Source: Macrotis lagotis (Eukaryota; Chordata; Mammalia; Peramelemorphia; Peramelidae). From it: a stretch of 64,000 nucleotides of DNA. Below the pieces are notes generated by a model, which saw only the letters and a program-made list of their open reading frames with translations, made no database searches and was not told where the DNA came from. Below are positions 59,093 through 62,000 of this stretch, piece by piece. The first letter of the stretch is position 1; every line of letters begins with the position of its first letter. The DNA is taken from contig NC_133660.1 in assembly GCF_037893015.1 (NCBI RefSeq), positions 282,969,067 to 283,033,066 of the forward strand, read 5' to 3'. A program made the position numbers and the translations under genes.

Positions 59093-62000
59093 ATGGAGGG
59101 TGAGGCTGGGCCCGGGCGGGGCGGGGCGGGGGCGCGGGAGGGGCCCGGGCCGGCGCGGGGGCGAGCTGGCCCCCCGCCGGGGCGGGGCGCGGGCGGGGCC
59201 CCCGACTCAGTGCCCCCGTGTCCCCCCTCTTTTCAGACCTGCTACCCATGATCTTCGCCTCGGGTAAGTGGGGGCGGCGCGGGGGCCGGGCGGCCGGGGG
59301 GTCGGGGGGCCCCGCGGGTCCTAAGCCGGGCTCTGCGCCCCCAGATTCGCCCCCGGCCCGGGGCCCCTTCGTGGAGATCATCGAGCAGCCCAAGCAGCGG
59401 GGGATGCGCTTCCGCTACAAGTGCGAGGGGCGCTCGGCCGGCAGCATCCCCGGGGAGCGCAGCACCGACACCACCAAGACGCACCCCACCATCAAGGTCG
59501 GGAGCCGGGGGGGCACCCCGGGGAGGGGTCCGGGGGGGAGCAGGGCACCCCGGGGAGCACGGCACCGACACCACCAAGACGCACCCCACCATCAAGGTCG
59601 GGAGCCGGGGGGGCACCCCGGGGGGGAGGGGGCACCCCGGGGGGAGGGGGCACCCCGGGGAGCGCAGCACCGACACCACCAAGACGCACCCCACCATCAA
59701 GGTCGGGAGCCGGGGGGGCACCCCGGGGGGGAGGGGGCACCCTGGGGAGCGCGGCACCGACACCACCAAGACGCACCCCACCATCAAGGTCGGGAGCCGG
59801 GGGGGCACCCCGGGGGGGAGGGGGCACCCTGGGGAGCGCGGCACCGACACCACCAAGACGCACCCCACCATCAAGGTCGGGAGCCGGGGGGGCACCCCGG
59901 GGGGGAGGGGGCACCCCGGGGGGGAGGGGGCACCCCAGGGAGCGCGGCACCGACACCACCAAGACGCACCCCACCATCAAGGTCGGGAGCCGGGGGGGGC
60001 ACCCCGGGGGGGAGGGGGCACCCCGGGGGGGAGGGGGCACCCCAGGGAGCGCGGCACCGACACCACCAAGACGCACCCCACCATCAAGGTCGGGAGCCGG
60101 GGGGGAGGGGGCACCCCGGGGAGCGCGGGCACCGACACCACCAAGACGCACCCCACCATCAAGGTCGGGAGCCGGGGGGGGGCACCCCGGGGAGCGCGGC
60201 ACCGACACCACCAAGACGCACCCCACCATCAAGGTCGGGAGCCGGGGGGGGGCACCCCGGGGGGGAGGGGGCACCCCGGGGAGCGCGGCACCGACACCAC
60301 CAAGACGCACCCCACCATCAAGGTCGGGAGCCGGGGGAGGGGGCACCCCGGGGAGGAGCCTGGGGGGGAGCGGGACACCCCGGGGAGCACAGCACCAACA
60401 CCACCAAGATGCACCGCACCATCAAGGTTGGAGCCAGGGGAGAGGCCCGGGGGGGAGGGGGGCACCAGGGGGAGGGGGGCACCCCTGGAGCGTGGCACCA
60501 ATACCACCAAGACACACCCCACCATCAAGGTTGAGAGCTTGGGGAGAGGGGGAGGGAGGGGCACACCCGGGGGAGGGGGCAGCGCCCCTCCATAAGGGCC
60601 TGGGGCCCCCCCTCCCCTGACTCTCCCCCCTCCCCTCCCCAGGTCAATGGCTACACGGGACCGGGGACTGTCCGCATCTCCCTGGTGACCAAGGAACCCC
60701 CCCACCGGCCTCACCCCCACGAGCTGGTGGGGAAGGACTGCAGGGATGGCTTCTATGAGGCCGACCTCTCCCCTGACCACTGCATCCACAGGTGAGGGCC
60801 TACAAGGGCCCAGGGAGTCAGGGGGGGCCCTCCCAGGGCCCAGGGAGTCGGGGGGCCCTCCCAAGTTCATCTCCCAAGATCATTTTGGGGAAGGGGAGCC
60901 GTAGAGCAGGAGAAATGGAGCCCACGCTAGGGGGTCTTTCCGGATGGGCGGAGAGCTGGGGCAGGGCCTGACAGGTGTGAGGTGTTAGCTTCCAGAACCT
61001 GGGGATTCAGTGTGTGAAGAAGCGAGATCTGGAGCAGGCCATCGCCCACCGCATGCAGACCAACAACAACCCCTTCAATGGTGAGAGGCCCCCAGCCCCA
61101 TGCCCCCACCACACCCAGGCCTGGCTGCAGCTCAGGGCTTCTGGATCTTTTGAGACACTCTTTGGGGGGATTGCTCCTGGTTCCCACATCCCCTCTTTCT
61201 CATAGCCCTCCTCAGGAGCCCTTCCCCAGGGGACAGAGCAGTGTTCTGGGCCTGGCGTCCCCCAGTTCTCAGATGCCAGAGGGGTAGGCTCCTTTCCCTG
61301 GCCCCACAGGGGCTGCTCTCTTAGTCCGCCCTTGGCTGGCTTCCAGTGACCTCAGTCTACCTGTCTTTTGTTCTCCACTTCTCTTCACCCCCATCTTCTC
61401 TGTTCACTGAACTTTTCCTATTGTTACTGCAGAGGATACATGGAGCTTTTCACCCCTTCTTTAATTGAGGACCCTTGCTGTGTTTTGGTTTTTGTAAGGC
61501 AGTGGGGTTAAATGACTTGCCCAAGGCCACACAGCTACTACCTAGTTAAGTGTCTGAGGTCAGTTTTGAACTCAGGACTTCCTGAGGCTCTCCTGCTTTG
61601 TTAAAGCAAAAAGCTGTAAAGACCTGCTGGGAATGTTTTGGTTTATATCAGATCTATTGTTTCTGTCTTGTCCCCCCCCCCCCCAACAATTAGATCATTA
61701 GATCAAAGGTCAGGGATCTTTAGGTTCCATTCTCCCCTTGTCTTGTGTTCTTCCCAACCCAGATGGGTGAAGTGTGCCTCTTTCCACTGACATTCCAGTG
61801 CTCGATGCTGGGGGGGGGGGGTGCCCTCTCCTCTTTTCTAACAGCTCTTCACCTTTCGTTTCCTCTCCTGCTCCCAGTACCACCCCCTCCCCCAAATTTA
61901 TTTGTTCTTTTTGGAAGTCATTTTCTGACCTTTATAATGGGTTCTTTTCAAAATGTCTTGAGGAAGGCTTCCTTCTTCACTTTAACCAGCTAGCTTGTCC

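What the first reader, a model, noticed from the sequence alone, without database searches (positions are those of the whole stretch)
59448..60540. RELA intron 3 is a minisatellite built from the end of its own coding exon and its splice donor
Seen directly: twelve copies of a 70-107 bp unit, the first being the genuine 3' end of exon 3 and the other eleven following in the intron. The coding part is almost unchanged in copies 2-10, although intronic copies should drift freely. Each copy carries a GT donor in the same context. Minisatellites are common in GC-rich introns, but one that duplicates a coding exon end plus 5' splice site in the DNA-binding domain of an immune master regulator is unusual. 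It raises questions about splice-site choice, transcript length polymorphism and G-rich secondary structure. I know of no report of it, but I cannot search.
Basis: partly seen in the sequence, partly recalled or inferred. Interest (0 to 1): 0.88.

Follow-up and report, generated by a model that had tools for sequence, protein, structure and literature searches.

The report
Repeated splice-donor array in bilby RELA
In what is almost certainly the greater bilby, the first copy of a DNA repeat that fills intron 3 of the immune gene RELA is the real end of exon 3, so the splicing machinery meets twelve look-alike exon ends in a row; this kind of repeat is known from a human gene, but this one is a clean natural test of how one splice site is chosen among ten identical ones.

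Summary
RELA intron 3 (59497-60642, 1146 nt) carries 12 tandem units 70-107 nt apart; unit 1 is the genuine exon 3 end and all 12 keep AAG|GT. It is the only full-length match found in the assembly, which fits the greater bilby, Macrotis lagotis. The hint that the coding part is held while introns should drift is not clearly supported. The identical block in copies 1-10 crosses the junction (35 exonic + 15 intronic nt) and exonic changes look unconstrained (8 of 12 non-synonymous), though the whole spacer does vary more. Copies 11-12 have lost all four CpGs of the block. This fits recent amplification or homogenisation beside a CpG island. Ten of 11 extra donors would shift the frame and give early stops; only donor 11 keeps it, adding 310 residues. 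Most likely this is a largely neutral minisatellite: donor 1 makes the functional mRNA and the rest are decoys with at most some unproductive splicing. A direct precedent is the human CBS 31-bp exon 13/intron 13 VNTR, so it is a new member of a known kind. Donor usage, polymorphism and age remain untested.

The parts
59345..59496 (+). RELA exon 3 (152 nt); its last 48 nt are the exonic part of unit 1
   Evidence: (PF00554 RHD, E 7.5e-21 for 59230-59496)
59449..59548 (+). copy 1: genuine exon 3 end, donor at 59497 (AAG|GTCGGG), first spacer
59549..60378 (+). copies 2-10 in intron 3; donors at 59597, 59702, 59789, 59876, 59982, 60089, 60164, 60234, 60323; 34-nt core and AAG|GTCGGG identical to copy 1
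60379..60481 (+). copy 11, decayed, donor 60427 (AAG|GTTGGA); the only extra donor in phase (+930 nt, +310 aa)
60482..60580 (+). copy 12, decayed, donor 60530 (AAG|GTTGAG), degenerate G-rich spacer (end approximate); in-frame TGA at 60532 for a retained intron
59448..59457 (+). CCCCGGGGAG in exon 3, repeated at 59516-59525 in the first spacer: candidate short direct repeat that seeded a 68-nt duplication (inference)
59497..60642 (+). intron 3, 1146 nt, 42% G, 13 merged G-quadruplex-type motifs on the sense strand
60643..60791 (+). RELA exon 4
   Evidence: (PF00554, E 1.7e-15)

Best explanation
A boundary-spanning, GC-rich minisatellite in RELA of a marsupial, almost certainly the greater bilby. 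A short direct repeat (CCCCGGGGAG) on either side of the exon 3 end may have let a ~70-nt piece (exon end + donor + first intronic bases) duplicate once. Unequal exchange or slippage then spread it to 12 copies and inserted extra ~19-nt G-rich modules (inferred). The inner ten copies are young or homogenised; the two at the intron's far end are older or lie outside the CpG island, and have lost the CpGs of the unit's core (loss shown, cause inferred). Functional RELA mRNA must use donor 1, because ten of the other eleven donors break the frame and the eleventh inserts 310 residues into the DNA-binding domain (sequence consequence shown; usage inferred). The extra donors are decoys that exon definition mostly disfavours; any use gives mRNA likely destroyed by nonsense-mediated decay (inferred). 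The array is mainly a by-product of repeat mutation, not a selected device.
For: 12 units and coordinates. The identical block spans the junction, 35+15 nt, in 10 of 10 inner copies. In the 49-nt core block all 40 CpGs are kept in copies 1-10 and 0 of 8 of these CpGs in copies 11-12 (the one CpG counted in copy 11 is a new one). CpG o/e is 0.49-0.67 over 59400-60399 and 0.22 at 60400-60599. Six of 12 distinct exonic changes are CpG decay and 8 of 12 are non-synonymous. Direct repeat CCCCGGGGAG at 59448 and 59516. Stops in exon 4 for 10 of 11 extra donors. No such array in the ~1.5 kb held past the corresponding junction of two paralogue loci (L008, L013). RELA exons match human along residues 16-551.
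Against: No relatives or other individuals could be compared, so 'recent' rests on the copies alone; germline hypomethylation of the CpG island could also keep the CpGs. Copy 12 is not mainly CpG decay: 3 of 4 exonic changes in copy 11 but only 2 of 7 in copy 12 are of that type by comparison with copy 1. The full spacer varies more than the exonic part, which leaves some room for constraint. Donor usage was not observed. Where two 5' splice sites compete, the one nearer the 3' splice site can be favoured (DOK7 abstract, PMC5585400, where SRSF1 does this), which would argue against easy use of donor 1.
Confidence: 0.7

Rival explanations
1. The array is a dose regulator: eleven decoy 5' splice sites and G-rich spacers divert a copy-number-dependent fraction of RELA transcripts into frameshifted, decayed mRNA, so alleles with more copies make less p65.
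For: By the frequency table exon 3's donor is the weakest of ten RELA donors scored (0.74 bits against 1.86 to 7.38), and nine further copies have exactly the same donor. Ten of 11 extra donors lead to early stops. A review passage says that more repeats of the CBS boundary VNTR go with lower enzyme activity. ABCA7 intronic VNTR length correlates with exon skipping and inversely with expression (abstract).
Against: No expression or population data. Nothing shows selection for it. Losing RELA output should be costly. By U1 duplex energy the exon 3 donor (-5.9) is no weaker than exon 6's (-5.8).
Confidence: 0.15
2. The multiple weak donors and G-runs help donor 1: they hold U1 snRNP and G-run binding proteins near a weak site, and the surplus U1 is removed as the spliceosome matures.
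For: Weak +3C donor; 96 GGG triplets and 13 G4-type motifs in the intron. A discussion passage says several U1 at alternative 5' sites affect selection but not efficiency unless the sites are very close, and a reference title there speaks of surplus U1 being purged (PMC5389562; that reference itself is not held).
Against: Purely mechanistic analogy; the two outer copies have weaker donors by the frequency table.
Confidence: 0.07
3. The exonic part of the intronic copies is under purifying selection, for example as translated repeats in an alternative protein through donor 11.
For: No stop in any of three frames between donor 1 and donor 12, against 0 of 500 base shuffles of that stretch open in all three; donor 11 is in phase and would add 310 residues. 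The whole spacer varies more than the exonic part.
Against: A shuffle that respects the repeat structure (one 87-nt unit shuffled and repeated 12 times) is open in all three frames in 994 of 2000 trials. Frames switch between copies. 8 of 12 changes are non-synonymous. The insert would split the DNA-binding domain.
Confidence: 0.03
4. Assembly artefact (false tandem expansion).
For: If this is the published bilby assembly, it used about 10x HiFi, PBJelly gap filling and Pilon short-read polishing, so G-run lengths and copy number may be slightly wrong.
Against: Copies differ from each other by substitutions and indels, some shared by neighbours. The array is 1.1 kb, far below typical HiFi read length (recalled). 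No N run lies in the window.
Confidence: 0.04

Closest known systems
Human CBS 31-bp VNTR, c.1444_1467+7(16_21), at the exon 13/intron 13 boundary
   Same: By its name the unit is 24 nt of exon end plus the first 7 intronic nt, so it includes the donor (my reading of the name); 16-21 copies; units with single substitutions (PMC2630376, passages); more repeats reported with lower CBS activity (PMC5188458, passage, which calls the sequence non-coding)
   Different: 31-bp units of fixed length there; 70-107 nt with inserted G-rich modules here; different gene and species; polymorphism and effect reported there, untested here. The original 2001 paper is not held
Human CBS c.844_845ins68
   Same: A 68-bp duplication of an intron 7/exon 8 junction that creates two competing splice sites, of which the paper says the more distal is strongly favoured (PMC2630376, passage)
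   Different: A single duplication, not an array
ABCA7 intronic VNTR
   Same: Intronic minisatellite whose length correlates with splicing and expression (PMC5954066, abstract)
   Different: In the abstract, the only part I saw, not described as built from an exon end
Tandem-repeat changes at exon-intron boundaries of human duplicated genes
   Same: Minisatellite expansion that alters gene structure, also at boundaries (PMC2812944, passages)
   Different: Concerns paralogues in segmental duplications and new introns

Membership tests
Minisatellite | tandem units of tens of bp, many copies, variant repeats, GC-rich | tested here: met
Minisatellite / VNTR | copy number varies between individuals | not testable with these tools
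   one assembly only, no relatives held
CBS-type exon-donor boundary VNTR | unit contains the exon's 3' end and its 5' splice site; first unit is the real exon end | tested here: met
CBS-type exon-donor boundary VNTR | repeat number alters gene output or splicing | not testable with these tools
   no RNA or population data held
Intron gain by tandem duplication (AGGT type) | the intron is new, formed by the duplication | tested here: not met
   by eye, an exon ends at the corresponding residue and phase in paralogue loci L008 and L013, so the intron predates the array
RELA (p65) | Rel homology domain and exon order along the protein | tested here: met

The most novel reading that the evidence does not exclude
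A mutable array of decoy 5' splice sites sets the dose of an NF-kB master regulator: alleles with different copy numbers splice different fractions of RELA productively, a copy-number dial on innate immunity in bilbies or bandicoots.
Probability: 0.12. Interest if true: 0.75.

Novelty: new member of a known kind. Interest (0 to 1): 0.38.

Why it matters
Ten 5' splice sites with identical 9-mers, identical 35 nt of exonic and 15 nt of intronic context, stand in series before one 3' splice site, in a gene that must be spliced correctly. That is a natural version of the classical duplicated-site experiments and would show whether position alone picks the site. The bilby paper describes 12 tissue transcriptomes and 12 resequenced greater bilbies (abstract passage), so the question may be answerable from existing data. 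Gene models and short-read genotypes at RELA exon 3 of this species could also be misled by the array.

Tried and rejected
Coding constraint as the cause of identity between copies: not favoured, because identity crosses the junction and changes look unconstrained, with the reservation that the whole spacer is more variable. The open frames: 0 of 500 base shuffles of the whole stretch are open in all three frames, but 994 of 2000 arrays built from one shuffled unit are, so I give them no weight. Related arrays elsewhere in the genome: five short matches on C6 (78-86% identity) fall on the spacer and at most the first bases of the next unit; TRF on two of the five loci (L002, L004; L003, L005 and L006 overlap L002) shows other minisatellites. 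That search scores only best candidates and skips simple repeats and common words, so a second exon-donor array is not excluded. The RELB-like locus (L011/L014): I could not read its junction and drew nothing from it. Literature: (at least 3 of the words RELA, intron, marsupial, minisatellite) listed nine papers, by title none on this; the main text of the bilby genome paper holds no whole-word 'RELA', 'NF-kappa', 'minisatellite' or 'VNTR'. Splice outcomes were wrong (exon 1-2 join off by one) and were redone.

Full report
WHERE IT IS. The window lies at C3:282969067-283033066 of an assembly of 3,655,600,598 bases in 607 contigs, whose C1 is 934,355,481 bases long. The greater bilby paper (PMC11239497; passages seen) gives 3.66 Gb, 609 scaffolds and a chromosome 1 of 934,426,298 bp. 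The figures are close but not identical, so this is very probably Macrotis lagotis (Peramelemorphia) in another version. A class II photolyase is present as nine matching pieces on C1, none over the family's cut-off singly. That enzyme is kept in marsupials and lost in placentals (recalled).

THE GENE. The one stop inside a matched piece lies in an alignment gap that I take for an intron. Exons 1 and 2 were read by eye. Pieces holding exon 3 and exon 4 match the Rel homology DNA-binding domain at E 7.5e-21 and 1.7e-15. A genome-wide search of that family scored 13 pieces, four of them in this gene.

THE ARRAY. Twelve copies of the exon 3 end with its donor follow each other at 70-107 nt. The intron is 1146 nt. 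Spacers are G-rich and contain a nested ~19-nt module. The 34-nt core is identical in copies 1-10, and the identical block spans 35 exonic and 15 intronic nt. In the 49-nt block 40 of 40 CpGs are kept in copies 1-10 and 0 of 8 in copies 11-12. Not all change in the outer copies is of this kind: relative to copy 1, 3 of 4 exonic changes in copy 11 and 2 of 7 in copy 12 are CpG decay. CpG observed/expected falls at the same place, from 0.49-0.67 to 0.22. So either the inner ten were amplified recently or homogenised, or they are protected inside the promoter's CpG island; both may hold.

IS THE CODING PART SPECIAL? Not clearly. Ungapped columns vary in 4 of 47 exonic and 3 of 20 intronic positions (2 exonic and 48 intronic gapped columns were dropped). 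Twelve distinct exonic changes (copy 8 left out because of its indel) are 8 non-synonymous and 4 synonymous, against 0.76 non-synonymous expected; 6 of 12 are CpG decay. Pairwise, copies 1-10 differ by 2.6% in the exonic part and 1.7% in the first 18 intronic columns. Against this, over all alignable spacer columns they differ by 6.3%, and copies 11-12 differ from the others by 28% there against 11-14% in the exonic part. The spacer is made of G-runs that cannot be aligned reliably, so I do not read this as selection, but it does not exclude it.

ORIGIN. CCCCGGGGAG occurs in exon 3 at 59448 and in the first spacer at 59516. A slip between them would copy a 68-nt piece, close to the shortest unit (70 nt). 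This is inference, and the second site could itself be a product of the array.

SPLICING. By a recalled frequency table the exon 3 donor AAG|GTCGGG scores 0.74 bits, the lowest of ten RELA donors (others 1.86-7.38); copies 2-10 score the same, copy 11 0.25 and copy 12 -3.07. By U1 duplex energy the picture is less sharp: -5.9 for exon 3, -5.8 for exon 6, -7.6 to -12.5 for the other eight. The corresponding donors in the REL-like (L008) and NFKB-like (L013) loci score 3.21 and 5.19 (gene names recalled from sequence). Relative to donor 1, donors 2-12 shift the frame in 10 of 11 cases, with stops 43 or 113 nt into exon 4. Donor 11 alone keeps the frame, with no stop through exon 5, and would add 310 residues; a retained intron stops at 60532. 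Functional p65 thus needs donor 1 (inference). How donor 1 wins over nine identical sites nearer the 3' splice site is the real open question. The DOK7 abstract shows that a protein bound just upstream can bias such choices towards the intron-proximal site. Another paper's discussion (passage) says several U1 can sit at alternative 5' sites and affect selection. G-quadruplexes near 5' splice sites are reported to affect Bcl-X splicing when stabilised by ligands (abstract, PMC5778605).

COMPARISON. The human CBS 31-bp VNTR is the same kind: its name c.1444_1467+7(16_21) reads as 24 exonic and 7 intronic nt, 16-21 copies (passages), and a review says more repeats lower activity (passage; the original paper is not held). 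So the present array is a new member of a known kind. For a report of it in RELA I searched; for boundary minisatellites. These were seen as listings (20 of 23 hits, all hits for the others), apart from the papers opened in part. None of what I saw reports it in RELA.

VERDICT. Largely a neutral by-product, with a modest chance of an effect on RELA output, and a useful natural experiment.

Noticed in passing
window 31697-34336 (+) and 31847-34378 (-): AP5B1 lies in one long open frame on the + strand (four Pfam AP5B1 domains), with an antisense open frame of 844 codons and no Pfam match at E 0.001, probably a GC-rich shadow frame.
   Followed up: partly
window 60805-60863: Two copies of a 30-bp repeat shortly after the exon 4 donor (60792): a possible second, small repeat beside a splice donor in the same gene.
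   Followed up: no
L002 456-1665 (G000 C6 ~16.738 Mb); L004 1502-2003 (C6 ~13.03 Mb): Other GC-rich minisatellites (17-bp unit, 66.5 copies; 71-90-bp units) that resemble mainly the spacer of the RELA array.
   Followed up: partly
window 59104-60531 (+), 59495-60421 (-): Long stop-to-stop frames through the array on both strands (476 and 309 codons), explained by stop-free repeated units.
   Followed up: yes
window 9160-9539 and 41407-41685: Long CT-rich (polypyrimidine) tracts.
   Followed up: no
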